Below are positions 27,196 to 41,610 of a stretch of 64,000 nt of DNA, piece after piece. Every line of letters starts with the position of its first letter. Within the stretch, counting starts at the first letter, position 1. Where the stretch lies: NCBI GenBank assembly GCA_009840735.1, contig VXNF01000038.1:1-64000 (forward strand). The letters are read 5' to 3'. The translations under genes were made by a program, and so were the position numbers. The notes under the pieces are model-generated. The model searched no databases. It was given only the letters and a program-made list of their open reading frames with translations, and was not told the DNA's origin. This stretch comes from Acidimicrobiia bacterium. Lineage in GTDB: Bacteria > Actinomycetota > Acidimicrobiia > Acidimicrobiales > CATQHL01.

Positions 27196-28047
27196 TCAGC
27201 GTTGCAGATCCCGATGCTGGACTTGCGGATCGAATCCGATCCGCCGCAGCGTGGCCGCGGCGTGCTCGGCCAGACACACCGAGCGGTGCCTTCCCCCCGT
27301 GCAGCCGAACGCCAGCGTGAGGTACGTCTTGCCTTCCGCCTCGAAGGCGGGCAGCAGCATTTCGCAGAGCTCGTCGAGGTGCCCGGTGAACCGCTCCCCC
27401 AGCGGGCTGCCCGCCACGAACGCTCGCACACGCTCGTCGCTGCCGTCCAGGGGCCGCAGGTCGGCCTCCCAGTGCGGGTTCGGCAGGAATCGGCAGTCGA
27501 AGACCATGTCCACGTCGGCGGGCAGGCCGTGGCGGAAGCTGAACGAGAGCACCCGCGTCGTGAGGCGCCGAGTGCCGGCGTCGTCGATCAAGCGCACGAG
27601 GCGGTCGCGCAGTTCGTGTACGTTGCTGTCGGAGGTGTCGATCACCACGTCGGCTTCGGCACGCAGTCCGCACAGGGCGTGCCGCTCGGCCTCCACGGCC
27701 TCCTCCACCGAGCCCCGCTGCGCGAACGGGTGGCGTCGGCGCGAGCCTTCGTAGCGCTGCACCAGCACTTGCGTGCGAGCCTCCAGGAACCACAGCCGCA
27801 CGTGGCTGTAGTGCGGGGCGCCTTTCGCCGCGGCTCGCAGATCGGCCACCGCCGGGCCGATCTCTTCGGAATAGCGTTCGCTGCCCATCGTCAGGCAGAG
27901 CCGCTCGGTGCTGGGCCCGGCCAACTCGATCACCTTCGGGATCAGCGACGGCGGCAAATTGTCGATGACGAAGAACCCCAGGTCCTCAAGGCAGTTGGCC
28001 GCCTCCGAGCGCCCCGACCCGGACAGCCCGCAGATGACGACGAGCAC
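27196..28047 (-). CDS. rapZ: RNase adapter RapZ / nucleotide-binding protein (YvcJ family)
   Basis: 'ICGLSGSGRSEAANCLEDLGFFVIDNLPPSLI', 'SFSFRHGLPADVDMVFDCRFLPNPHW', 'AFGCTGGRHRSVCLAE'. Confidence 0.95.
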   Translation of the reverse strand: MLVVICGLSGSGRSEAANCLEDLGFFVIDNLPPSLIPKVIELAGPSTERLCLTMGSERYSEEIGPAVADLRAAAKGAPHYSHVRLWFLEARTQVLVQRYEGSRRRHPFAQRGSVEEAVEAERHALCGLRAEADVVIDTSDSNVHELRDRLVRLIDDAGTRRLTTRVLSFSFRHGLPADVDMVFDCRFLPNPHWEADLRPLDGSDERVRAFVAGSPLGERFTGHLDELCEMLLPAFEAEGKTYLTLAFGCTGGRHRSVCLAEHAAATLRRIGFDPQVQHRDLQR

Positions 28048-28132
28048 GCCCCGAGCCTACCGAACGCACCCCACGCCAGACGGCCCCCGAGAATTGGGGA
28101 CGCCCGGCAGACTCAGTCGATCTGCGCCAGAC

Positions 28133-31042
28133 TTAGTAGTACCTGGCGATGTAGGCGTACGCCCTGTCGAAGAGGTCTTGATCGGTGTGGAGCTTGTACT
28201 TGAGCAGGCTCCTGCGAAGCGCCTTCTTCACCTCGCGCTCGCCAGCCTCGGTCCGCTGCCATCCCGGGAATCGAACCTGGCGCACGATGCTGTCGATTTC
28301 GGCAACGATCCGGTCGACGATCACCGGGGTGTTGGTGTTCTTGACCTCTTCGAACAGCTCCGTGAGAGCGGCCTTGCCCACATCCTCTTGGAGTTCCTCT
28401 GGTTCTTCGCGCTCTGCTTGGACCACGTCCTTGGCGAGGTCGATCAGCTGCTTGAGGAATTCGACGGAGGCAAGCAGTCCCTGCTCGTGTTTCAGCCGGA
28501 GGCTCTCTAGCCGCTCCGATAGTGCCACGAACTTGGGATTGTCGCTATGGCGCCGAAGGCGGGTGGCAATCTTGATCTCGATTTCGACGGTGTTGCGCTC
28601 CGGGTCCTCGAGCAGCCCTTCGAGAACTTCGGCGTCCATCACCAGCGTGTCGAGATCGTCCCGCACGGTCTGCACTGAGATGTTCCGGTGGATCAGCTCG
28701 ATTGTCTTCGCTCCAAGTGCGTGCCAGAGCAGTTTGCCGTTACCCGACGGAGGCTTGAGGGAGTCGTAGACCTGGGCCAACCAGCGGTAGTCGTTCTCGA
28801 TCGGCACCAGCAGCGGATCGGGCGACAGCGCTTCCCAGAGTCGGGACAACGCGCTGAAGTCCGCGGCGAACTCGTCCCGTCGGTTCGTGTCGGGCAAGCA
28901 CTCTTGTGCAGCCAGCAAACCCTCCCAGCTGCAGTCACCGCGATCAACGCCTTCGAACCACTGCAAGCACCTCGCCATCGCGGGTCCGAGTTCCTCCTTG
29001 AGATCATCGATGTTTGAGATGACCTTGTCGATCGAGGCCTCGTCGAAGGCGAGCGCCTGCGCAACATCATCGAACAGTCCGAGGTAGTCGACGATCAGCC
29101 CGTGGGACTTGCCTGGAGCGACTCGATTCGTTCGGCAGATCGCCTGCAGAAGGTTGTGATCCCGCAGCGAGCGGTCGAGGTACATGCACTGCAGGTTGGG
29201 GGCGTCGAAACCGGTCAGCAGCTTGGCGGTGACGATCAGGATCTTCAGGGGATCGGCCGGATCACGGAATCGGTCGAGCAGCGCGGCCTCCTCGTCCTTT
29301 GACCACCCGAAGCGGTTTCGCCAGGTTTGCGGCGCTCCGTGTCCCAGGTTCATGACCACCTCGCTGGCCTCAGCAGGCAGTTGGTCATCGGCGAGTGCAT
29401 CGAGTGCGTCCTTGTAGAGGACGCACGCTTCCTGATCCACGGTGACGATCATCGCTCCGAACCCTTCGGGGGCGACTCGCGCAAGGAAGTGCGCTCGAAT
29501 GTCGGAGATCACCGCCTCGACCCGAGCCGGGGCCTTGACCAGGAGAGCGAAGCGGCCCGCTCGCCTCGAGACCTCGGCCCGGTCCTCGTCGCTCAGGTTG
29601 CGAGTCAGTTCCTCGAACTCCTTGTCGAGTGCGGCGCGGTCGATCCGGAGATCGACCGATCGCGTTTCGAAGCGAAGCGGAAGGGTTGCATCGTCACGAA
29701 TCGACTCTTCGAAGCTGTAGCGATCGAGATACCCGCCTGGATCCTCGATGGCCCCGAATGCGTAGAAGGTGTTCCGGTCTCGGGTATTGATCGGGGTGCC
29801 GGTCAGGCCGAAGAGGAAGGCGTTCGGCAACGCGTTCCTCATCTGCCGGCCGAGGTCGCCTTCCTGCGTTCGATGCGCCTCGTCCACGAGAACGACGATG
29901 TTGTCTCGGTCGTTCAGCACGCCACCGGCCTCGGCGAACTTGTGGACGGTGGTGATGATGACCTTGCGAGCATCACGGGCGAGCAGGTTGTGAAGCTCCC
30001 GCCTGCTGTCGGCCGTGACCATGTTGGAGACATCGGCGGCGTTGAACGTGGCGGTGATCTGCGTGTCGAGATCGATCCTGTCGACGACGATCACCACCGT
30101 CGGGTTGCCCAGCTCCTCGTGCTGTCGGAGCTTGTTGGCTGCGAAGACCATGAGCAAGCTCTTGCCCGAGCCCTGGAAATGCCAGATCAGCCCCTTGCGG
30201 ATCCGGCCCCCAACGACACGCCGCACAATCTTGTTGGCTGCCTCGTACTGCTGGAACCGGCAGATGACCTTGATCTTGCGGTGGTTTCGATCCGTGGCGA
30301 ACACCGAGAAGTTCTGGGCGATGTCAAGCACCACGGCGGGGCGCAGCATCGACGAGACGGCGCGGTCGACCTCGTGAAGGCCATACTCGCCTTCTTCTTC
30401 AAGCCGCCACGGTGACCAGTGGTACACGGGGAGTCGGATCGAGCCGAACCGGAACTCCGTGCCGTCGGTAGCGAACGAGAACGCATTCGGGACAAAGAAG
30501 GCGGGGGCGTTGACCTCGTAGTCGTCGTGAACCTGGGCCGCGCCGTCGAGCCAGGTCACCGCCTTGCGCACCGGCGACTTGGCCTCCCCAAGGACCAGTG
30601 GCAGTCCGTTGACGAAGCCGACAACGTCGAACCGTTTCTCGGGCCCGGCTGCGAACGTGACCTGGTTGGACACGATGAAGCTGTTCATCTCAAGCTCGGC
30701 GAGGTCGAAGTCGATCAGCTTGATCGTGACGTGCTCGTTGTTCGGTCCGAACGGCATGCTGCGCTCGCCCTGAACCCAGGACATGAACTCCTCGTTTGCT
30801 CCGACGAGGCCGCCACCGAGGACGCCGTTGACCACCGCCCGGAGCTTGTAAATGACCTCGTCAGCACGTTGGGGCTGGGCGGCGATGGCGGGATTCAGTC
30901 GGATGAGCGCCCCCATCAAAACGGACTCGAGCAGGACGTCGGATACTAAACGCTCAAGGGCTGAACTCTGGACGTATGTCCAACCCAGTTCGGTCATCCG
31001 GTCGAGGACCATCGCCTCCACCGTGTTCGCTTCATCGAACAC
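28133..31042 (-). CDS. hsdR: Type I restriction endonuclease subunit R
   Basis: 'LVLGEAKSPV', 'GLIWHFQGSGKSLLMVFAA', 'DEAHRTQEGDLG', 'FGLTGTPI', 'VTAKLLTGFDAP', 'ICRTNR'. Confidence 0.95.
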   Translation of the reverse strand: MFDEANTVEAMVLDRMTELGWTYVQSSALERLVSDVLLESVLMGALIRLNPAIAAQPQRADEVIYKLRAVVNGVLGGGLVGANEEFMSWVQGERSMPFGPNNEHVTIKLIDFDLAELEMNSFIVSNQVTFAAGPEKRFDVVGFVNGLPLVLGEAKSPVRKAVTWLDGAAQVHDDYEVNAPAFFVPNAFSFATDGTEFRFGSIRLPVYHWSPWRLEEEGEYGLHEVDRAVSSMLRPAVVLDIAQNFSVFATDRNHRKIKVICRFQQYEAANKIVRRVVGGRIRKGLIWHFQGSGKSLLMVFAANKLRQHEELGNPTVVIVVDRIDLDTQITATFNAADVSNMVTADSRRELHNLLARDARKVIITTVHKFAEAGGVLNDRDNIVVLVDEAHRTQEGDLGRQMRNALPNAFLFGLTGTPINTRDRNTFYAFGAIEDPGGYLDRYSFEESIRDDATLPLRFETRSVDLRIDRAALDKEFEELTRNLSDEDRAEVSRRAGRFALLVKAPARVEAVISDIRAHFLARVAPEGFGAMIVTVDQEACVLYKDALDALADDQLPAEASEVVMNLGHGAPQTWRNRFGWSKDEEAALLDRFRDPADPLKILIVTAKLLTGFDAPNLQCMYLDRSLRDHNLLQAICRTNRVAPGKSHGLIVDYLGLFDDVAQALAFDEASIDKVISNIDDLKEELGPAMARCLQWFEGVDRGDCSWEGLLAAQECLPDTNRRDEFAADFSALSRLWEALSPDPLLVPIENDYRWLAQVYDSLKPPSGNGKLLWHALGAKTIELIHRNISVQTVRDDLDTLVMDAEVLEGLLEDPERNTVEIEIKIATRLRRHSDNPKFVALSERLESLRLKHEQGLLASVEFLKQLIDLAKDVVQAEREEPEELQEDVGKAALTELFEEVKNTNTPVIVDRIVAEIDSIVRQVRFPGWQRTEAGEREVKKALRRSLLKYKLHTDQDLFDRAYAYIARYY

Positions 31043-32207
31043 GGTTGTCTCCCGCTAGCAGGTCCTCTCGCACGGCAGCAAGAACCGAACGGGCCTCGCG
31101 GCAATGTCTCTCGATCGCGCGCTGGAGGTCTCGCACTCCTTGCCAGCAGTCGACAATCGAGCGCTGTTCATCGAGATCCAGGTTTGGAATACGGACCTTC
31201 TTTAGATTCGTTGCGTTGACGTTGGCTTGACTGACACCCTGAGTAATGAACGAGCGAATCCGTCGTTGACCGCTGGCAGACTGGAGATACGCGGCGACAA
31301 ACTCGGGGAGCATCGACTCCTTGTCGACGCGCAAGCGGAGCAAATACGAAGCGAAAGTTGCTGGATTGTCTAGCACGCCGACTAGGGCCACCTTGCCTAC
31401 GTGTTCGAGGCTATTCGTACGGTTGAACAAGATGTCACCGGTCTGAAGCAAGTCAGATTCGCTGACCTGATCATCAAGTACCCATTTCAGGTCGTCAAGT
31501 CTCAGTTCCTCGTTGTCGAGATTGTTCATCCTAAGAATTGGCAGTTCGCCGGCGTCCTGCGGCGCTATCGAAATCCCATAGTCACATGAGGAGAGAACGG
31601 TCCCGAGGGGCACGTGATCGACTGCATCAGAGCTACTGAGGACGATTGCGTCTCTGAGACATCGTGCAGCTCTGATAGCGTCTTCCAGAGTGTCAATTTG
31701 GTGCTGCCCGGCTGACAGCACCTCGCAGATCTCATGCTGCAGCGAAGGTGGCGGTAGCGTGAACTCGTACCATGTGAGATCCCTGAAATTGATGTAGGGG
31801 TTAACCGAACCCTTGCTCTGTTGCACTGAGTGTTCATGAAACCTCTCGGTCGACATGACTTGCGGAAGGAACTCGGGCAGCAGGTCAGCGCTGCTCGGCT
31901 CCAACACGAATGTGGTGTTCGCGCAAATCCCCTCGAAGTCCGCCACGGCGACCTTGCGCAGGTAGGTGCGCCGACTTCCGTAGAGCACCTGTCCGGGCCT
32001 GAACCGCATGTGGAAGGCAGGTCCGAGGTAGCCGTCATCGACGTCGCCCCACCGCTGCAGCCTCAGATCATCTGTGTCCATGTGCCCCCCAGCGACATAG
32101 CGCGTGAGATCCGCGGTCTGGGGATCGACCTTGTCCTTGACTTGTTGGACGACGTCTCCAAAGCGAGCCCATCGCCAGCCATCGGGTAGCGATCGATCCG
32201 AGGTCAC
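31032..32207 (-). CDS. hsdS: Type I restriction specificity subunit S
   Basis: 'LPDGWRWARFGDVVQ...', two target-recognition-like halves, 'GDILFNRTNSLEHVGKVALV', 'IRIPNL'-type end; GTG start 32207 overlaps hsdM stop. Confidence 0.87.
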   Translation of the reverse strand: MTSDRSLPDGWRWARFGDVVQQVKDKVDPQTADLTRYVAGGHMDTDDLRLQRWGDVDDGYLGPAFHMRFRPGQVLYGSRRTYLRKVAVADFEGICANTTFVLEPSSADLLPEFLPQVMSTERFHEHSVQQSKGSVNPYINFRDLTWYEFTLPPPSLQHEICEVLSAGQHQIDTLEDAIRAARCLRDAIVLSSSDAVDHVPLGTVLSSCDYGISIAPQDAGELPILRMNNLDNEELRLDDLKWVLDDQVSESDLLQTGDILFNRTNSLEHVGKVALVGVLDNPATFASYLLRLRVDKESMLPEFVAAYLQSASGQRRIRSFITQGVSQANVNATNLKKVRIPNLDLDEQRSIVDCWQGVRDLQRAIERHCREARSVLAAVREDLLAGDNRVR

Positions 32208-33685
32208 AACGTGGCCTCCGAATCGAGACGTGCAAACAGCGCGTGAGTCGCGGAGCGAAGTTCGGACGCGCTCTGTCGCCACTCAACTAGGGCGGCGCCG
32301 AGGTCATGATCAGGGCGAGCCCCCACGCGGTCGACGTGCAGCGGAATCGAGAGGTTGTTGTCAACGTCGGCGATCGCGTCGACCCGCGTGACTGCGGCGA
32401 ACCCGTCCTCCGATTCGAACGATCGGAATGTCTGCACGATCCGGTCGATGTGATCGTCGGTCAGGAAGCTCTGCGCCCGCTCACGCGTGACCTCATTGAC
32501 CGCATCGATAAAGAGCACCTTGCCCGCTCGTTCAGCAAGCCTCTTCGAGCGACACACCACAATGCACGCCTCCATTGGGGAGTTGTAGAAGAGGTTTGGC
32601 CCAAGCCCGATCACGGCTTCGATGAGATCGGCGGCGACGATGCGTCGGCGCATCTCGAACTCCTCGTCTCGGAACAGCACGCCATGAGGGAACAGGACAG
32701 CGCAGCGTCCTGTCGCCGGGTCCATCGAGGCGAGGATGTGCTGCCAGAACGCGTAGTCAGCTCGCCCCTGCGGCGGCGTGCCGTACTTGTTCCGACCCCA
32801 CAGATCGGCTGACCACGCATCTCGATCCCAGGCCTTGATCGAGTACGGGGGGTTGGCCAGGACCACGTCGAAGCGCCTGAGTTGGTCGCCGTCAGTGAAC
32901 GCTGGATTGGCGAGCGTGTCGCCACGCACGACGTTGAAGTCTTCGATGCCATGGAGGAACAGGTTCATGCGGGCGATCGCGGACGTCGTGAGGTTCCGCT
33001 CCTGCCCGAACAGTCGCAGCGTCCGGTGCTCCTTGCCCTGGCGCCGGAGTTCCTCTGCTGCTGAGAGCAGCATGCCGCCCGAGCCGCACGTCGGGTCGTA
33101 GACACTGTCGCCCGGCTCGATCTCGAGGAGCTGCGTCATGAGGTGGACCAAAGTTCGATTCGTGTAGAACTCCGCGGCGGTGTGGCCAGAGTCGTCGGCG
33201 AACTTCTTGATCAGGTATTCGTAGGCGACACCGAGCTCGTCCTCGGGGACGTTGCGCAGGCTCAGCGTGACCTGGGAGTAGTGCTCGATCAGCTCCTTGA
33301 GCGTTGTGTCGGGCAGCCGTTCCTTGTTGGTCCAGGGGGCGTCGCCAAAGACGCCGCCGAGTCGCGGATTCGCCCGTTCGATCTCGCGCATTGCCCCAGA
33401 GATCGTTCGGCCGACGTCATTGGCCGACTGTCGGAGGTCCGACCAGTGTGCCCCGTCGGGGATCTGGAAGCGGTGCTGTTCGGGCAGGGCCGCGTAGTCC
33501 TCGTCACCCTGGGACACCTCCAGCGCGGCCTGCCACTCCTCGTCGAACACGTCACTGAGACGCTTCAGGAACAGCAGCGGGAAAATAAACGACTTGTACT
33601 CACCCGCATCGATGGTCCCGCGGAGGAGCGTTGCTGCACCCCAGAGGTAGGACTCGAGCTGCGACTGGCTGATGCGGGTGGTCAC
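32204..33685 (-). CDS. hsdM: Type I DNA methyltransferase subunit M (first paralog)
   Basis: 'FYTNRTLVHLMTQLLEIEPGDSVYDPTCGSGGMLLSAAEEL', 'NPPYSIKAWDRD'. Confidence 0.95.
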   Translation of the reverse strand: MTTRISQSQLESYLWGAATLLRGTIDAGEYKSFIFPLLFLKRLSDVFDEEWQAALEVSQGDEDYAALPEQHRFQIPDGAHWSDLRQSANDVGRTISGAMREIERANPRLGGVFGDAPWTNKERLPDTTLKELIEHYSQVTLSLRNVPEDELGVAYEYLIKKFADDSGHTAAEFYTNRTLVHLMTQLLEIEPGDSVYDPTCGSGGMLLSAAEELRRQGKEHRTLRLFGQERNLTTSAIARMNLFLHGIEDFNVVRGDTLANPAFTDGDQLRRFDVVLANPPYSIKAWDRDAWSADLWGRNKYGTPPQGRADYAFWQHILASMDPATGRCAVLFPHGVLFRDEEFEMRRRIVAADLIEAVIGLGPNLFYNSPMEACIVVCRSKRLAERAGKVLFIDAVNEVTRERAQSFLTDDHIDRIVQTFRSFESEDGFAAVTRVDAIADVDNNLSIPLHVDRVGARPDHDLGAALVEWRQSASELRSATHALFARLDSEATL

Positions 33686-35178
33686 GCGATTCCCCGTTCG
33701 GCGAGGAGCTGGTTCAGGCGGTCCTCGGCGGTCCAGGCCGCGTCCAGGGCTTCCTGAAGCGCCTTCGTTGCTTCTTCGACCGACGGGATGTCCTCGTCGT
33801 CGGGCTTCGATATGTAGCCGGCGAGGTTGAGGTTGCCGCCCTGCTCGCGGACCTCGTCAAGCGTTGCGACGTGGCAGCGGCCTTCCTCGGCTGCGAACTG
33901 CTCGTAGGCCTCGAGAATCGACTCGACGTGCTCCTGTTCGAGTGTGTTCTGGGTGCGGCCCTTGCGGACGAGGTCGGAGGCATCGACGAGCAACACCTTG
34001 GACCGGCGTGCTTCGGGCTTTCGGCGACGGGCGACGAGGATGCAGGCTGCGAGGCCGGTGCCGTAGAACAGGTTCGGGCCTAGGCCGATGACGGCTTCGA
34101 TGAGGTCAAGGTCGAGGACCTTCGAGCGGATCCTGCCCTCGGCGCCCATTCGGAACAACGCTCCGTGGGGCAGCACGACCGCCATCCTGCCCGTCGCCGG
34201 CGCCATCGAGGTGATCATGTGCTGCACCCAGGCCCAGTCGCCGTACTTCTTCGGTGGGGTGCCCGCCAGGTTGCGGCCCCACGGGTCGTTCGGCCACGTG
34301 TCTTCACCCCACGAGCTGAGTGAGAAGGGGGGATTAGCAATAACGCAGTCAAAGGTGGCCAACTTGTCGCCAGTGAGGAACGCCGGTTGTCTCAGCGTGT
34401 CGCCGCGGACGATCCGGAAGTCCTCGGCGCCGTGGAGAAAGAGGTTCATGCGGGCGATGGCGGCGGTGGTGAGGTTGCGCTCCTGGCCAAAGACGTGGCC
34501 GAGCATGAGCCGCTCGTCACCGCCTGATTCCTTGACTTGTTGGAGAGTCTCGAGGAGCATGCCGCCGGTTCCGCAGGCCGGGTCGTAGACGGTGTCGCCG
34601 GCCTGCGGGGCGAGCATCCTCACCATGAGTTCGACGATGGTGCGCGGGGTGTAGAACTCGCCGGCCTTCCGGTTGGTGAGATCAGCGAACTTCTTGATGA
34701 GGTATTCGTAAGCATCGCCGAGCACGTCGTTGGGCACCGCGGAGTTGCGCAAGTCGAGCTGGCTGAAGTGGTCGATCAGGTCGACTAGGAGCTCGTCGGA
34801 CAGGCGATCCTTGTTGGTCCACTGCACGTCACCGAAGATGCCGTAGAGGGTGTTCGGGTTCGCCTTCTCGATCTCGCGCATCGCACGCTGGATGGCCTGT
34901 CCGACGTTGGTGGCGCGCTCTCGGAGGTCCGTCCAGTGACTCCCGTTCGGGATCTGGAAGCGATGCTGCTCTGGTAGGTCGGCGTATTCCTCGTCACCAC
35001 CCGACTCTGCGAGAGCCTCGGCGCGCTCCTCGTCGTAGACGTCGCAGATCCGCTTGAGGAACAGCAGCGGGAACACGTAGGCCTTGAAGTCCGATGCGTC
35101 GACGGGACCGCGGAGTATGTTCGCGGCTTCCCAGAGCATCGATTCCAGGTTCGTTTGGCTATTCGCCACTACGCCCAT
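33682..35178 (-). CDS. hsdM: Type I DNA methyltransferase subunit M (second paralog)
   Basis: 'FYTPRTIVELMVRMLAPQAGDTVYDPACGTGGMLLETLQQV', 'NPPFSLSSWGEDTW'; start ATG 35178 preferred. Confidence 0.95.
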   Translation of the reverse strand: MGVVANSQTNLESMLWEAANILRGPVDASDFKAYVFPLLFLKRICDVYDEERAEALAESGGDEEYADLPEQHRFQIPNGSHWTDLRERATNVGQAIQRAMREIEKANPNTLYGIFGDVQWTNKDRLSDELLVDLIDHFSQLDLRNSAVPNDVLGDAYEYLIKKFADLTNRKAGEFYTPRTIVELMVRMLAPQAGDTVYDPACGTGGMLLETLQQVKESGGDERLMLGHVFGQERNLTTAAIARMNLFLHGAEDFRIVRGDTLRQPAFLTGDKLATFDCVIANPPFSLSSWGEDTWPNDPWGRNLAGTPPKKYGDWAWVQHMITSMAPATGRMAVVLPHGALFRMGAEGRIRSKVLDLDLIEAVIGLGPNLFYGTGLAACILVARRRKPEARRSKVLLVDASDLVRKGRTQNTLEQEHVESILEAYEQFAAEEGRCHVATLDEVREQGGNLNLAGYISKPDDEDIPSVEEATKALQEALDAAWTAEDRLNQLLAERGIA

Positions 35179-35231
35179 TCTGCTTCTCCATGATCCTTCA
35201 ACCGGTCGAAGGATCGTTGGGGCACAACGCG

Positions 35232-37151
35232 TCAACCACTCCCAGCAGCCTCTTGACGCTTGCGCTTCGTGAAGCTCTCTCGGACCAGGTCCTGCGCCTG
35301 CCGTGCCCCCAGGTCCAGGAAGCCAGCCGGCCAGTCGTCGCCGATGCCGCCGTACCGGTTGATCTCCGGCTCCCGGTAGGACGTGACGCCGTCGCGGTTC
35401 TCGGCGAAGACGAGCCTGATCAGGTCATGGGTAGCATCTGTCGGGTCGCTGGCGATCCGGTGCCGCAGACGATTCACGAGATGCTCGCTGTGCGACTCGA
35501 CGACCAGCTGTCGACCCGATCGTGCGCATGCAAGCAAGAAGTCTGCAAGCTTCTGCTCGAGCCGGGGATGCAGGTGGAGTTCCGGCTGCTCGAGAACCAC
35601 CAGCGTGCCCGGCGCGGCAAGCAGACAGAGCAGGATCACCGGGAGGATCTGGCTGACACCGACACCGACCGCCGTGAGATCCACCTCGCGTTCAAGCCCC
35701 GGCGGGGTCACGCTCAGGCCGATGCCCATCCGGCCGCGATCCTCAGACCGCGCGTTGTCGGCAAGCTCGAACTCCCTGAGCCAGTGGTTGAGCGCGTCGC
35801 TGAGTCGACGCCGTTCGCCGTGACCATCGGTGGGCATAACGACCCGGGTGCGCGCTTGGGCGTGGAGGACCGCCGCCGAGTACTCACCGCGCACGCCTAG
35901 ATCAAGCTTCGACGGGCCGGGATCGTAGAGGACATGCGGAGCTTCGCGAAGGGGGCCCAGATAGCGGACCCCTTCGCTGAAGAAACGCTGCGTGACACCG
36001 CCAACACGCCAGAGCGCCTCCCCAGCCGAACCGGAGTGTTCGACCAGAATCGCTTCATCAATCCACTCCTCGGCCGCGAGCGTCTTGCGAAGGTCCTTGC
36101 GGAACCGGGCTTCACCGAGCTGCACCATGCTCTTGGCGAGGGAGACTCGTCGCCTGTTGGTCAGCTGACCCAGCTCGCGATACCACCGCCGTTCGAGCAC
36201 ATCGCCGGGACCCCCCAGACCACCTCCGATTGGCGGACTCATCGACGCGTCGCTGTTTGCCGACAGTGTCAGCGCTTCGATATCGGCGTGGGCGCGCTTC
36301 ACGGCCGTTCGGCTGACGCGCGGTCTCTTGTCCGCATCGAGCGCCTCCGCAGCGGCGCGCCTCTCGTTCTCGATCTCCTCTTCGAGCAGCGTCGCCGCGG
36401 TGTTCCACCAGACCTCAGCGATTCGGTCCAGCTTCTTGACGGAGCGCATGAGGGCTTGCGGCACTCCCCCTGCCAACACCACCGCGTCCACCGGCCCCGA
36501 CAGGCCGGAAGCCCAGTCTTGGACGCGGCCACTCGCTGCGATCGCCGCTCGCCGGCGCATTGGGAACCGTCCCCTTCGGCCGGAGTAGTCGATCGCATCT
36601 ACGACGTCAGCATCCGCGGCCACGTCGCTCACGTCGCAAGTGAGTACCGCCGTCCGCTCCCCCGACTCGGGCTCGACCGTCTCGACTTCGATCTGCAACG
36701 AGTCGATCCGAGCGAAGCCTCCGCGGGCCCCACCTTCCTCGGGCGAGTCGCCAAGGTACGCACGCCAGCCGACTTCGACTACCCCGAGCGGCGACCCGTC
36801 CCCTCCTCGCACCACGCCATCAACGAACCGGTCGCGGTGGCTGCGCCGGTCGGCGAGGCGGAATGCCACCTCCATCTGCCCGTCTGGCTGTGCGGCGAGG
36901 AAGTTCCGTGTCTCGTCGAACGTGCCGAGCCGCACGAACTCACCGTTCAAGGGAAACTCCGCACCGGCGGTTCGCGAACGGACCGCTTGCGTCACAGCCA
37001 GAATCGACTGCAGCAGCGTGCTCTTGCCCGAGCTGTTCGCCCCGACGACCACGGTCAAGGGCCGAAAGTCCACAGCTGCCTGGGCGACCGACTTGAAGTC
37101 TTGGAGCTCGATTCGTCTCAGCTGATAGGGGTGTCCGAGCGTGTCAGTCAT
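35232..37151 (-). CDS. AAA/RecF/OLD-like ATPase with DUF3696-like C-terminus
   Basis: Walker A 'VVVGANSSGKSTLLQSIL', Walker B 'LVVLEQPELHLHPRLEQKLADFL', 'VESHSEHLVNRLRHRI', C-terminal 'EINRYGGIGDDWPAGFLDLG'; start ATG 37151 overlaps upstream stop. Confidence 0.85.
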   Translation of the reverse strand: MTDTLGHPYQLRRIELQDFKSVAQAAVDFRPLTVVVGANSSGKSTLLQSILAVTQAVRSRTAGAEFPLNGEFVRLGTFDETRNFLAAQPDGQMEVAFRLADRRSHRDRFVDGVVRGGDGSPLGVVEVGWRAYLGDSPEEGGARGGFARIDSLQIEVETVEPESGERTAVLTCDVSDVAADADVVDAIDYSGRRGRFPMRRRAAIAASGRVQDWASGLSGPVDAVVLAGGVPQALMRSVKKLDRIAEVWWNTAATLLEEEIENERRAAAEALDADKRPRVSRTAVKRAHADIEALTLSANSDASMSPPIGGGLGGPGDVLERRWYRELGQLTNRRRVSLAKSMVQLGEARFRKDLRKTLAAEEWIDEAILVEHSGSAGEALWRVGGVTQRFFSEGVRYLGPLREAPHVLYDPGPSKLDLGVRGEYSAAVLHAQARTRVVMPTDGHGERRRLSDALNHWLREFELADNARSEDRGRMGIGLSVTPPGLEREVDLTAVGVGVSQILPVILLCLLAAPGTLVVLEQPELHLHPRLEQKLADFLLACARSGRQLVVESHSEHLVNRLRHRIASDPTDATHDLIRLVFAENRDGVTSYREPEINRYGGIGDDWPAGFLDLGARQAQDLVRESFTKRKRQEAAGSG

Positions 37152-38080
37152 GGCGCCACGGGCTCCTTCGCCGCGAGGTAGTGGACTCGATCGTGCGGTA
37201 CCTCTCGGTCGGTGGCACCCAGATGAGCGGCCGTGAGCATGCACCGAACATCGGTCCGGGCCTCAGAGCTGACACCGGTCGCGCCCCGAAGCAGAACTTC
37301 CTGAAGGCCCATCAGCAGGTCGGCCCCGAGATCGCTGAATTCCAACCATGTGTCGAGGTCGAGCGCGCCAGCTGCGAGCAACCGCTCCAAGTCGTCGTGT
37401 GCAAGAGACAGGCGGCGGGTCTGCGCCCAGTGCAGCAGCTCGATCAGAAGCAGCTCCGGATCGTCCGCGAGGTCGAGCAACTCAGGCTGCAGAAGACCAG
37501 GGTTCACTTCCCAGTCAAGCTCCTGATCGAGCTGAGCCTCCGTGCAATCGGCGGCCAACGCTCGCAACGCGGCCCCCTCCGATTCCTTGAACGACCATCG
37601 TCGATCGAGTGGTCCCGCGAGCGGGATGCCCGTGTGGAGTTCAGCCGGTCGAGCGGCTGGAGCCATGGGCAGCTCGCCCGCCTCGGTGATGTCGTCGGCG
37701 GCCATTACGGCCGCAAGCGCCGGCGCCGCCAAGCGCCCAAATCGCTTGCCGAGCTGAAGAATCCAGACAGCCCCACGGAGGTCAGTCTGCACGACCGCGT
37801 CGTAGGGCGCGGACGTCACGTCAGAAGGAAGAACGACGTCGCGATCTGTCGCTAGCTCCGGGGCGGCGTGGACGAGCAGGACCTCCGCGAACTCACCGAC
37901 CGGATCGACCCGTCGGACCAAGCCAATCCGGCGGTCAGCCGGCCTGTGGGCGAGCGACTCGATAACCCGCAGATCGCCCTCGGACACCCGAGTCAGCGGC
38001 ACAGACCCATGTGCGTCCGGGGTTCGAGCCGTGGCACGCTGAGACAGTGCCGATGTCACTATCGCCGGTACGTCAGCCAT
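37148..38080 (-). CDS. Hypothetical protein of the ATPase/RM operon
   Basis: Start ATG 38080 ('MADVPAIVTSALSQRATARTPDAHGS'), overlaps both neighbours; no family recognised. Confidence 0.75.
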   Translation of the reverse strand: MADVPAIVTSALSQRATARTPDAHGSVPLTRVSEGDLRVIESLAHRPADRRIGLVRRVDPVGEFAEVLLVHAAPELATDRDVVLPSDVTSAPYDAVVQTDLRGAVWILQLGKRFGRLAAPALAAVMAADDITEAGELPMAPAARPAELHTGIPLAGPLDRRWSFKESEGAALRALAADCTEAQLDQELDWEVNPGLLQPELLDLADDPELLLIELLHWAQTRRLSLAHDDLERLLAAGALDLDTWLEFSDLGADLLMGLQEVLLRGATGVSSEARTDVRCMLTAAHLGATDREVPHDRVHYLAAKEPVAP

Positions 38081-39032
38081 CCCCGGACTCCAAGGTCGCC
38101 GCCTCCTCAAGGAGGCGTCGCGCTGCCTCATCGTGCAGGACCGACGGCACGTCTGCGATGACATCGCGCTCGACCATCTCGAGTACCTCATGCTTGCGAT
38201 CAGCCAGCCAGGGCCGCGAGCGATTCAGGCGGCTCGCCAACTCGCTGTCGGACAGCCCCTGAGCCTTGCCGAGCAGCACGACGCGATGGACCGAGCTGAG
38301 CCCGGTCACGAAGCCGCTGATCGCCGTCCTCATCTCCGAGCGCTGCGCTTCGAGCTCGGGGGTTGACTGTTCGACATGATCCTCCTCATGGTCGCGAAGG
38401 ATCGTTGGGAGCCATACTGTCAACGTGGTCTCAAGAATTCTCCGCACGTCGCCAAGCGAGATCCCGTTGAACTCCTCGACGAGCACCCGCACGAGCTCCA
38501 TCAGGTCGCTCCGGCTGTAGACGCGCGACTCGCGTTCTGCGGTGGGGTTCGACACGAGCCGAGGAATCGGGTTGATCAGCGTCGAACCGCGGCGGATCTC
38601 GGCGTCTGAGAGCCTTGCCGGTTCACGACCACTGCCCGACGGCGAGAGGAACTGATCTGAGCCAAAGGCGGTTAGCTGGAATTCTGCCGCGAGATCGAAC
38701 TGGCGGATGCGAGTCAACAGCCTGTCGACGACGGTTCTCGATCGCCTGTGGTTGAGGACCCGCCGAACCTGGAAGGCCAGGAGGCGGCTGAGCGAGTCCT
38801 CATCGGTCGCCAAGCTGAGGACGTACTCGAGCTGGTTCTCGTGGAGCAGTCGATACAGGGCAACGTCCTGTGCAAGGTCTTGGATTGCTTCCACAGACCA
38901 TTGCTCAGCGTCGTTGTAGACCTCGGGCGGATAGCGACGGGCGACGCGACCGGCAACCGCGAGGAGCAGGTTCCAAAACCGCGAGCCGATGCCGTCTCGC
39001 TCGCACTCGTCGAGCAGGTCCTGGTAGCTCAT
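38073..39032 (-). CDS. Divergent sigma-70-like / HTH regulatory protein
   Basis: N-terminal helical segment 'EAIQDLAQDVALYRLL...LLAFQVRRVLNHRRSRTVVDRLLTRI', C-terminal region-4-like HTH 'LSSVHRVVLLGKAQGLSDSELASRLNRSRPWLADRKHEVLEMV'. Confidence 0.6.
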   Translation of the reverse strand: MSYQDLLDECERDGIGSRFWNLLLAVAGRVARRYPPEVYNDAEQWSVEAIQDLAQDVALYRLLHENQLEYVLSLATDEDSLSRLLAFQVRRVLNHRRSRTVVDRLLTRIRQFDLAAEFQLTAFGSDQFLSPSGSGREPARLSDAEIRRGSTLINPIPRLVSNPTAERESRVYSRSDLMELVRVLVEEFNGISLGDVRRILETTLTVWLPTILRDHEEDHVEQSTPELEAQRSEMRTAISGFVTGLSSVHRVVLLGKAQGLSDSELASRLNRSRPWLADRKHEVLEMVERDVIADVPSVLHDEAARRLLEEAATLESGDG

Positions 39033-39421
39033 AGCGCCCCAAACCGCTTCAGCTCAGACAGGAGCCAATCCTCATCCGGTTCAAGGCAGGAGTACGTCTC
39101 CTCGCACAGCGCAGAGGCCGGTACGCTCACCGGCGCCCTGTAGACAATCCAGCCGTCCCTGTCCAGCGCACATGTGCCGAGTCCGCCATCGTGAACGTGC
39201 GCTGGATGGCTCAGAGCCGTCTTACGAGAGGCCGACCTGGCGAACACCGTCGAGTTCGGACCGTGACTGCTTGCCAGAACGACAGGTCGCCCGAGCCCTC
39301 CAACGCGCTCGGAGAATCGTCGCCCACTGGGCGTACGGACTGCGTCGTGCGGCACGCAGAACCAGCACGCGGGACCGTATTCGAATCCGGCCCCCAGTTC
39401 CCGCCGCAACTCATCCCACAC
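39029..39421 (-). CDS. Small protein, possible PemK/MazF-like or uncharacterised; first gene of operon
   Basis: GTG start 39421; 'GRPVVLASSHGPNSTVFARSA...CALDRDGWIVYRAPVSVPASAL' weakly MazF-like; ATGA overlap with next gene. Confidence 0.5.
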   Translation of the reverse strand: MWDELRRELGAGFEYGPACWFCVPHDAVRTPSGRRFSERVGGLGRPVVLASSHGPNSTVFARSASRKTALSHPAHVHDGGLGTCALDRDGWIVYRAPVSVPASALCEETYSCLEPDEDWLLSELKRFGAL

Positions 39422-39607
39422 CCCCGGTCACGTCCATTCCCCAGCCCGACACACAATTGCAGACTATGTGGTGCCGCGCGAATTCGTGGGATGTGGGTTG
39501 CCAGAGCCGGTCGAGACCGCGCCGGGGGTCGGGGGGCCGATTTGCGGTGCCTTGCGCCCGCGCGACGGAACATACGGCGCCCCGCCCCCCGACCGGGCCG
39601 CTGCGCC

Positions 39608-41458
39608 TCAGGCGTGGAACTTGGCGTGGACGGCTTCGGCGACGCGCTCGGGCAGCCAGCTGAGCGAGCGCAGGTCCTCCAGCGAGCTGCGCCGCACGGC
39701 CCCCACGCCGCCCAGTTCGGCCACGAGGCGCTTGCGGCGGGCCGGTCCCAGTCCGGCGATCCCGTCCAAGGCCGAGGCGGTCATCCGCTTGCCGCGCAGC
39801 TGCCGGTGGTACGCCAGAGCGAAGCGGTGGCTCTCGTCGCGGATGCGCTGCAGCAGGTAGAGGGCCTCAGACTGCCGAGGGATACGCACCGCCTCGGGCT
39901 GGTCGGGGACGAACACCTCCTCGAACTGCTTGGCCAGGGCCGCGGCGGGAATCTCCCCCGCCAAGCCCAGGCGCGCGAGCACCCGCTTCGCCACGCCCAG
40001 CTGGCCGGCGCCGCCGTCCACCAGCAGCAGCTGGGGCGGGTAGGCGAAGCGGCCCCGCTCGCCCGGCGGCAGGCCGCGGCTGTCGAGGTAGTTGCGGAGC
40101 CGCCGCTCCAGCACCTCCTCCATGGCCGCCAGGTCGTTGTTTGAGGCCACCTTGCGCAGGCGGAACCGCCGGTACTCCGACTTGCGGGGCAGGGCGTCCT
40201 CCATCACGACCATCGAGCCCACGTAGTCCTGTCCGCCGAGGTGGCTCATGTCGTAGCACTCGATGCGCAGCGGGGCCTCGGGCAGGCCCAGGTACTGCTG
40301 CAGCTCGTTGAGGGCGCGGGCCCGGCTGTTGTGGTCGCTGGCCCGCTTGAGACGGTGCCGATGCAAGGAGTCGGCGGCGTTGCGGTGAGCGGTCTCCGCC
40401 AGGCGTCGCTTGGCGCCCCGCTGCGGAACCCTGATCTGCACCTTCGAGCCTCGCAGGCCCCCCAGCCAGTCGGCGTACATCTCCTCGGCGGCCGGCGGTT
40501 CGGGCACCAGCACCGCCTTCGGGTAGCCGAGGGGGTTCTCGTCAAAGTAGATCCGCTCTAGGACGCGGCCCATCAGCTCCGATCCCGACAGGTCCTCGGC
40601 CCGGTCCACGATGAAGCCGCGCTGGCCCATGACACGGCCTTTGCGCACAAAGAACACCGAGACCGCCGCCTCTAACTCGTCGGAGGCCACGCCGAAGACG
40701 TCGAGGTCCTCGGCCCGCGAGCCCACCATCTCTTGGCGCTCGACGGCCTTGCGCACGCTCGCTAAGCGGTCCCGCAGCTGGGCCGCCCGCTCGAAGTCCA
40801 GCGCCTCGGCGGCGGCGGCCATGTCCGCCTCCAGGCGCCGGAGGATCTCGCCGGTGTCGCCAGCTAGGAAGTCCAGTAGCTCGCCGACCAGCCCCCGGTA
40901 GGCCTCCCGGTCGATCTCCCCGACGCACGGCCCGGCGCAACGCTCGATGTGGTACAGCAGGCAGGGCCTACCGAGGCGCTGATGGTCGGCGAACTTGTTG
41001 TCCGAGCAGGTGCGGATCGGGAACGTGCGCAGCAGCAGGTCGAGGGTCTCGCGGATGGCGTAGGCGTGTCCGTACGGGCCGAAATAGCGGTTCCCCTTGC
41101 GCTTGCTGCCCCGCACGACCATCGCCCGGGGCCACTCGTCCACCAGCGTGACGCACAGGAACGGGTAGCTCTTGTCGTCTCGGTAGCGCACGTTGAAGCG
41201 CGGCTGGTGGCGCTGGATGAGGCTGTACTCCAACATCAGCGCGTCCACTTCGGTGGCGACGGTGATCCACTCCAGCGACGCCGCGGCGGACATCAGCTGG
41301 GCGGTGCGGGGGTTCAGCTGCGCCGGCGCGCCGAAGTAGCTGACGATGCGACTGCGCAGCGACTTGGCCTTGCCGACGTAGACGACACGCCCGTCGGCGT
41401 CGAGGAACTGGTACGACCCGGGGACTTCGGGGATGGTCGCAGCAGGCGGGCGCTCCAT
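39608..41458 (-). CDS. uvrC: Excinuclease ABC subunit C
   Basis: GIY-YIG domain 'PGSYQFLDADGRVVYVGKAKSLRSRIVSYF', 'PCLLYHIERCAGPC', 'IECYDMSHLGGQDYVGSMVV', 'LLVDGGAGQL'. Confidence 0.97.
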   Translation of the reverse strand: MERPPAATIPEVPGSYQFLDADGRVVYVGKAKSLRSRIVSYFGAPAQLNPRTAQLMSAAASLEWITVATEVDALMLEYSLIQRHQPRFNVRYRDDKSYPFLCVTLVDEWPRAMVVRGSKRKGNRYFGPYGHAYAIRETLDLLLRTFPIRTCSDNKFADHQRLGRPCLLYHIERCAGPCVGEIDREAYRGLVGELLDFLAGDTGEILRRLEADMAAAAEALDFERAAQLRDRLASVRKAVERQEMVGSRAEDLDVFGVASDELEAAVSVFFVRKGRVMGQRGFIVDRAEDLSGSELMGRVLERIYFDENPLGYPKAVLVPEPPAAEEMYADWLGGLRGSKVQIRVPQRGAKRRLAETAHRNAADSLHRHRLKRASDHNSRARALNELQQYLGLPEAPLRIECYDMSHLGGQDYVGSMVVMEDALPRKSEYRRFRLRKVASNNDLAAMEEVLERRLRNYLDSRGLPPGERGRFAYPPQLLLVDGGAGQLGVAKRVLARLGLAGEIPAAALAKQFEEVFVPDQPEAVRIPRQSEALYLLQRIRDESHRFALAYHRQLRGKRMTASALDGIAGLGPARRKRLVAELGGVGAVRRSSLEDLRSLSWLPERVAEAVHAKFHA

Positions 41459-41610
41459 CACGCCCTCAATCGTACGGCTGCCCACACGACGGCTCGGACC
41501 GCCGCACCGGGCACCGACCCCGCCAGCTTTCGTTTATCCCATTTGTTTTGCGAGATTCGATTATTTTCGGCCTGATGGGCATTCACCCCTCCGGGGCGCT
41601 GCCCGCCGCG

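What the first reader, a model, noticed from the sequence alone, without database searches (positions are those of the whole stretch)
28133..39421. Eight-gene coupled operon: small ORF, sigma-like protein, unknown, DUF3696-like ATPase, HsdM, HsdM, HsdS, HsdR
Seen: all genes are on the minus strand and most junctions overlap. These are ATGA at 39029-39032, ATGGCTGA at 38073-38080, ATGA at 37148-37151, GTGA at 33682-33685, GTGA at 32204-32207, and an 11-bp overlap at 31032-31042. hsdM paralog 2 follows the ATPase by about 50 bp, or overlaps if an alternative TTG start is used. Known: type I RM needs only hsdR, hsdM and hsdS. Inference: the four upstream genes are part of the same functional unit, a composite RM plus ATPase defence system with its own regulator or sensor. 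I do not recognise this gene order as a named system.
Basis: partly seen in the sequence, partly recalled or inferred. Interest (0 to 1): 0.78.

Follow-up and report, generated by a model that had tools for sequence, protein, structure and literature searches.

The report
Toxin-fold ATPase cassette guarding restriction systems
An eight-gene island in an uncultured actinobacterium pairs a normal DNA-cutting immune system with a separate, previously unnamed four-gene cassette (two RNA-cutting-toxin-like proteins, a sigma-factor-like protein and an ATPase) that recurs in other actinobacteria next to different phage-defence systems, so it probably acts as a portable back-up defence.

Summary
In detail: eight minus-strand genes, with coupled junctions at every stated coordinate. 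They fill exactly one ~11.5-kb insertion between uvrC and rapZ, which lie 22-25 bp apart in four congeners. The island holds two separable modules. Genes 5-8 are an intact type I RM with tandem hsdM; a ~60%-identical hsdMMSR occurs elsewhere without the upstream genes. Genes 1-4 form a discrete cassette, conserved in order in 14 loci from 13 actinobacterial genomes (two more partial). Genes 1 and 3, unrecognised by Pfam, NCBIfam or PADLOC, adopt the MazF/PemK RNase-toxin fold. Gene 2 has a sigma-region-4-like HTH; gene 4 is an OLD/AriA/NsnB-type ABC ATPase without a nuclease domain. Downstream partners differ: type I RM (two independent recruitments, including Cellulomonas composti), BREX, a PDC-S11 candidate, or none. 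Best explanation: a portable OLD-ABC-anchored back-up (abortive) module with MazF-fold effectors, analogous to PARIS/PrrC guarding RM/BREX. The cassette is well supported; its mechanism is inferred. New variant of a known kind.

The parts
39029..39421 (-). P1: MazF/PemK-fold protein (130 aa), probable RNase effector; Arg/His45 and Ser/Thr63 at the MazF catalytic positions, plus invariant W20, R62, H75, C84, C112, E114
   Evidence: AF2 pLDDT 84; Foldseek best 39 PDB hits all MazF/Kid, prob 1.00 for the best, best E 4.9e-3; profile search of PDB top hits MazF, E 0.33; residue table
38073..39032 (-). P2: sigma-factor-like DNA-binding protein (319 aa), C-terminal region-4-type HTH, N-terminal DLAQDV motif resembling sigma region 2
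   Evidence: Profile hits to ECF sigma/LuxR HTH; TIGR02937 E 0.0075; hhalign
37148..38080 (-). P3: MazF-fold N-terminal domain plus helical C-terminal domain (310 aa); MazF catalytic Thr position not conserved
   Evidence: Foldseek: 41 PDB hits at E<1e-3, all MazF; hhalign vs canonical MazF of related genomes 94% prob
35232..37151 (-). P4: OLD/AriA/NsnB-type ABC ATPase (639 aa) with DUF3696-like C-terminus and no nuclease domain; Walker A GANSSGKS, VGVGVSQ, LEQPELHLHP, SHSEH
33682..35178 (-). HsdM paralogue 2 (motifs DPACGTGG, NPPF)
32204..33685 (-). HsdM paralogue 1 (motifs DPTCGSGG, NPPY)
31032..32207 (-). HsdS specificity subunit (start probably at 32207; longest ORF from 32282)
28133..31042 (-). 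HsdR motor/nuclease subunit (969 aa; EAK, GSGKS, DEAH)
28064..39607 (.). Inserted island between rapZ (27196-28047) and uvrC (39608-41485); the site is empty in four congeners (UvrC ~90% identical)
35192..35215 (.). Inverted repeat GATCCTTC-N8-GAAGGATC in the only gap of the operon, between the cassette and the RM block

Best explanation
The locus is a single mobile insert made of two modules: (i) a four-gene cassette P1-P4 (MazF-fold, sigma-like, MazF-fold + helical domain, OLD-type ABC ATPase) and (ii) an ordinary type I RM system with two HsdM paralogues. The cassette most likely works as a portable back-up (guardian, abortive) defence: the P4 ATPase senses infection or interference with the neighbouring modification-based system and controls a MazF-fold RNase (P1, with degenerate P3 as partner or scaffold); the sigma-like P2 binds DNA to regulate the cassette or position the complex. 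Shown here: the module, its conservation, predicted folds, residues, island boundaries and changing defence partners. Inferred: defence activity, sensing by P4, RNase activity of P1, and the roles of P2 and P3.
For: P1-P2-P3-P4 keep order and strand in 14 loci of 13 genomes; P2, P3 and P4 mark the same genomes in a 395-genome class sample. P1 and P3 match only MazF/Kid folds at the top of the PDB. P4's best relatives are defence ATPases: NsnB 2.6e-64, HEC-03B, AriA. Directly downstream, same strand, within ~10-95 nt: type I RM (window; L026/L027/L030), BrxA + BrxC/PglY (L031), PDC-S11 (L017/L018). Type I partners were gained twice on the cassette tree. In G359 the hsd genes are reduced to a relic while P4 is intact and P3 is open to the contig edge. 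Precedent: OLD-ABC modules as back-up effectors of BREX (PMC12839542); PARIS and PrrC as RM guardians (PMC12707154).
Against: P1's MazF assignment rests mainly on fold; its sequence similarity is weak (hhalign 6%) and the P1 model superposes at TM ~0.5-0.6. No antitoxin is identified. P2 could make the cassette a regulator rather than an effector. About half of the loci have no RM/BREX partner, so a guard function specific to RM/BREX is not required. No experiment exists.
Confidence: 0.5

Rival explanations
1. The cassette is a regulatory switch: P2 is a true (ECF-like) sigma factor held in check by P1/P3 or P4, and on infection it directs RNA polymerase to the cassette and the downstream RM/BREX operon.
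For: Region-4-type HTH and a DLAQDV motif aligned by hhalign to the DLVQE of region 2; partner operons lie downstream on the same strand. Type I RM islands are known to carry dedicated regulators such as RptR (PMC12255303).
Against: Region 2 is not recognised by Pfam in any of 12 members. Half of the loci have no co-directional partner. No conserved motif was seen by eye upstream of P1 (no motif finder run). Two MazF-fold proteins and an OLD-type ATPase are not expected in a simple regulator.
Confidence: 0.2
2. The cassette is an independent stand-alone defence or toxin-antitoxin system that merely shares islands with RM/BREX, without functional coupling.
For: Found without RM/BREX in L016, L019-L021, L025; in G359 the cassette outlives the hsd genes; hsdMMSR exists without it (L046).
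Against: Repeated placement 10-95 nt upstream of a co-directional defence operon in four lineages, with two independent type I recruitments; joint insertion with the RM in the window.
Confidence: 0.27
3. Obligatory eight-gene composite RM + ATPase system.
For: One insertion, coupled genes.
Against: Both halves occur separately (L046; L016, L025 and others), and partners are exchanged.
Confidence: 0.03

Closest known systems
PARIS (AriA OLD-ABC ATPase + AriB TOPRIM nuclease)
   Same: OLD-type ABC ATPase (P4 matches AriA models, 1e-23) encoded with a nucleic-acid-targeting effector; PARIS is an RM guardian in the literature
   Different: No TOPRIM AriB; two MazF-fold proteins and a sigma-like protein instead; four genes
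Menshen (NsnABC)
   Same: P4's best PADLOC match is NsnB (2.6e-64)
   Different: No DUF262 NsnA and no OLD-nuclease NsnC; P1-P3 match no Menshen model
OLD-ABC back-up effector modules of BREX and BR systems (Nucleic Acids Res 2026, PMC12839542)
   Same: OLD-ABC ATPase plus nuclease recruited beside BREX and RM-like systems
   Different: The effectors listed there are TOPRIM, HNH, PD-(D/E)XK, PIN, HEPN and Schlafen; the text does not mention MazF/PemK
EcoprrI/PrrC and DarTG-in-type-I-RM islands
   Same: Translation-blocking or toxin module inside or beside a type I RM locus
   Different: Unrelated proteins; here the module precedes the hsd genes and changes partner
MazEF / PemIK toxin-antitoxin
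   Same: MazF fold of P1 and P3; catalytic-like R and S/T in P1
   Different: No MazE; larger operon with a sigma-like protein and an ATPase; P1 has extra invariant H and C residues
MADS (mad1-8)
   Same: ATPase plus N6-methylase plus HsdS in one operon
   Different: P4 far below the MAD3 cut-off (40.8 vs 420 bits), M below MAD2, S below MAD5; the RM here is a canonical type I

Membership tests
Type I restriction-modification (genes 5-8) | HsdM with HsdM_N, N6_Mtase and NPP(F/Y) | tested here: met
   (two paralogues, both intact)
Type I restriction-modification (genes 5-8) | HsdS with Methylase_S | tested here: met
Type I restriction-modification (genes 5-8) | HsdR with nuclease and SF2 motor motifs | tested here: met
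PARIS | AriA-type OLD-ABC ATPase | tested here: met
   AriA models 1e-23
PARIS | AriB TOPRIM effector | tested here: not met
   no TOPRIM match in P1-P4
Menshen | NsnA (DUF262) and NsnC present with NsnB | tested here: not met
   P1-P3 match no PADLOC model at E<0.1
MazF/PemK fold | MazF beta-barrel fold | tested here: met
   predicted models: P1; P3
MazEF toxin-antitoxin | Catalytic Arg and Ser/Thr | tested here: inconclusive
   P1: R/H at 45 and S/T at 63 in 14 of 14; P3: Thr position variable
MazEF toxin-antitoxin | Adjacent MazE-type antitoxin | tested here: not met
   P2 does not match MazE/AbrB models
MazEF toxin-antitoxin | RNase toxicity | not testable with these tools
   needs experiment
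Sigma-70 (ECF) factor | Region 4 HTH | tested here: met
   weakly: Sigma70_r4 best 8.8e-5 in family members; ECF sigma PDB hits E 0.002-0.005
Sigma-70 (ECF) factor | Region 2 (core binding, -10 recognition) | tested here: inconclusive
   no Pfam Sigma70_r2 match; hhalign score 23.4 vs 20.5, the best of 30 column shuffles
MADS | MAD1-MAD8 above NCBIfam cut-offs | tested here: not met
OLD-ABC-anchored back-up module of BREX/RM | OLD-ABC ATPase plus effector directly adjacent to BREX/RM core genes | tested here: met
   but not in every locus

The most novel reading that the evidence does not exclude
A previously undescribed defence module in which an OLD-type ATPase, two MazF-fold proteins and a sigma-factor-like protein form one sensor-effector machine, moved as a cassette upstream of unrelated modification-based immune systems (type I RM, BREX); the sigma-like subunit may link infection sensing to RNA polymerase, either to direct the RNase to nascent transcripts or to reprogramme transcription of the partner system.
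Probability: 0.3. Interest if true: 0.85.

Novelty: new variant of a known kind. Interest (0 to 1): 0.62.

Why it matters
It defines a recurrent cassette made of three families that none of the annotation libraries searched recognises (P1-P3) plus one defence-type ATPase. Its repeated capture upstream of type I RM and BREX makes the RM/BREX-guardian idea testable outside Proteobacteria, with MazF-fold effectors and a sigma-like protein not reported for such modules in the papers I could search. A cultured carrier, Cellulomonas composti NBRC 100758 (L030), makes it accessible.

Tried and rejected
Viral contigs (IMG/VR): no relatives of P2, P3 or the P2 alignment. Plasmids: none for P2; one partial P3 match on a Euzebya plasmid with no cassette around it. 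Pfam, NCBIfam and PHROGs gave no significant match to the window's P1 or P3. Menshen, PARIS and MADS were considered and rejected as membership. A shared operator or promoter upstream of P1 was looked for by eye: none obvious. The GATCCTTC-N8-GAAGGATC repeat does not recur in other loci, and hairpin strength in the gap is not conserved, so no regulatory claim is made. The 15-nt repeat shared by that gap and the P2 gene is compatible with chance by my rough estimate. Literature searches found no description of a MazF/sigma/ATPase cassette, but the 2020 ABC-ATPase classification paper cited there (10.1093/nar/gkaa726) is not held, so prior mention cannot be excluded.

Full report
OBSERVATION. 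All eight ORFs and every stated junction are in the sequence. All seven junctions are tight: six overlap, and the only gap is 53 nt, between the ATPase and hsdM-2. Pfam confirms genes 5-8 as a canonical type I system: two HsdM (HsdM_N + N6_Mtase, both with intact SAM and NPPF/NPPY motifs), HsdS, and HsdR with nuclease (EAK), Walker A and DEAH motifs. Gene 4 is an AAA_21/AAA_15 ATPase with a sub-threshold DUF3696 match.

ONE ISLAND. The flanking genes are uvrC (39608-41485) and rapZ (27196-28047), followed by gap and pgk (identified by me from the translations). In four congeners with ~90% identical UvrC, uvrC and rapZ are only 22-25 bp apart. The eight genes therefore are the whole content of a single ~11.5-kb insertion (28064-39607), with GC of roughly 0.60-0.67 against ~0.70 around it.

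TWO MODULES. P3 searched in 395 genomes of the class matched 8. Around those hits, and around further loci from a scan of 84,980 species genomes with the P2 alignment, P1-P2-P3-P4 occur in the same order and strand: window, L015-L021, L025-L027, L030, L031, L033 (P4 cut by the contig end in L033), with partial loci L013 and L014 at contig ends. That is 14 loci in 13 genomes, all Actinomycetota or unclassified bacterial MAGs grouped with them, plus the cultured Cellulomonas composti NBRC 100758. In the class sample P2, P3 and P4 mark the same genomes; the exceptions are G359, where P2 lies beyond a contig end, and a partial P2-like match in G213. The P1/P2, P2/P3 and P3/P4 overlaps recur, for example all three are 4-nt in C. 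composti.

PARTNERS. What follows P4 changes. Window: hsdMMSR. L014 (P4 63% identical): a relic in which 20 codons of hsdM run into hsdR fragments while P4 is intact. L026/L027: hsdM, hsdS, a Ymh-family gene, hsdR. L030: hsdM, hsdS, hsdR, with HsdM ~34% and HsdR ~30% identical to the window's, i.e. a different RM lineage. L031: BrxA then BrxC/PglY, a BREX system cut by the contig end. L017/L018: PDC-S11 (DUF4268) 10 nt downstream. L015: Vsr and a type II-like methylase nearby. L019: a convergent HEC-05 (GmrSD_N) gene. L020: integrase. L016, L021, L025: no adjacent partner recognised. On the P2+P4 tree, type I partners need two independent gains. Conversely, the closest hsdMMSR relative found (L046, ~60% identical for M2, M1 and R) has no cassette in 20 kb. 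The two halves are separable, but have joined repeatedly.

WHAT THE FOUR PROTEINS ARE. P4 belongs with OLD/AriA/NsnB ATPases (PADLOC NsnB 2.6e-64, HEC-03B 4.9e-50, AriA ~1e-23) and keeps GxNSSGKS, VGVGVSQ, LEQPELHLHP and the SHSE region; no nuclease domain is found. P1 and P3 have no significant Pfam, NCBIfam, PADLOC or PHROGs match. Profile searches of PDB nevertheless put MazF/PemK first for both, at weak E-values (0.33 and 0.18). AlphaFold2 models (P1 pLDDT 84; P3 barrel residues 31-130 mostly ~75-92) searched with Foldseek give only MazF/Kid at the top: the best 39 hits for P1 (best E 4.9e-3) and all 41 hits at E<1e-3 for P3. hhalign of P3 against canonical MazF of related genomes gives 94%; P1 is not detectable that way (6%). 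P1 keeps Arg/His and Ser/Thr at the MazF catalytic positions in all 14 members; P3 does not keep the Thr position. P2 has a C-terminal HTH like sigma region 4/LuxR; region 2 is only suggested.

HOW IT PROBABLY WORKS. Precedents put OLD-type ABC ATPases in control of nuclease effectors: in PARIS, AriA holds AriB until an anti-restriction protein is sensed (PMC12409363, PMC12707154), and a 2026 BREX survey describes OLD-ABC modules as back-up effectors recruited beside BREX (PMC12839542). I infer that P4 senses infection or interference with the partner, and that P1 (with P3 as a degenerate partner) is the RNase effector; P2 is a DNA-binding regulator or targeting subunit. None of these activities has been shown. 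The regulator and stand-alone rivals remain open.

NOVELTY. The principle (OLD-ABC-anchored back-up module attached to RM/BREX) is known. This composition is not named in PADLOC, Pfam or NCBIfam, nor in the papers I could search; one likely relevant catalogue (Krishnan et al. 2020) was not available. I therefore call it a new variant of a known kind.

Noticed in passing
window 32204-35178; L046:10132-13118: Tandem hsdM paralogues (M2-M1) are conserved as orthologous pairs (~60% orthologue vs ~50% paralogue identity) with S and R in another genome, both with intact catalytic motifs, suggesting a heterodimeric type I methyltransferase.
   Followed up: partly
L014:2409-2668 (G359:C98): Relic type I RM: hsdM N-terminus joined to hsdR fragments by deletions, next to an intact P4 gene.
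   Followed up: partly
window 35192-35215 and 38378-38403: Two GATCCT...AGGATC inverted repeats (0.02 expected by chance, pattern chosen after seeing it), one perfect in the P4-hsdM gap, one inside the P2 gene; not found in the other cassette loci.
   Followed up: partly
L020 and L021 (G425): One MAG (APA_bin_98; 8% contamination) carries two divergent copies of the four-gene cassette on different contigs.
   Followed up: no
L015:8476-9525: The P2 gene is interrupted by an in-frame stop or frameshift in this MAG; pseudogene or assembly error not resolved.
   Followed up: no
L019:5423-7168: HEC-05 (GmrSD_N/DUF262) gene convergent with the cassette on a 3-Mb chromosome contig.
   Followed up: no
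G000 and congeners: The window's genome has 6 canonical MazF/PemK genes and same-order genomes have up to 22.
   Followed up: no
L003:15001-15339: Partial P3 homologue on Euzebya pacifica plasmid pEDY32-46I without the rest of the cassette.
   Followed up: no
L026:7333-8046: A Ymh-family gene (PADLOC Aga_HEPN / PD-Lambda-3_B C-terminal similarity) sits between hsdS and hsdR.
   Followed up: no
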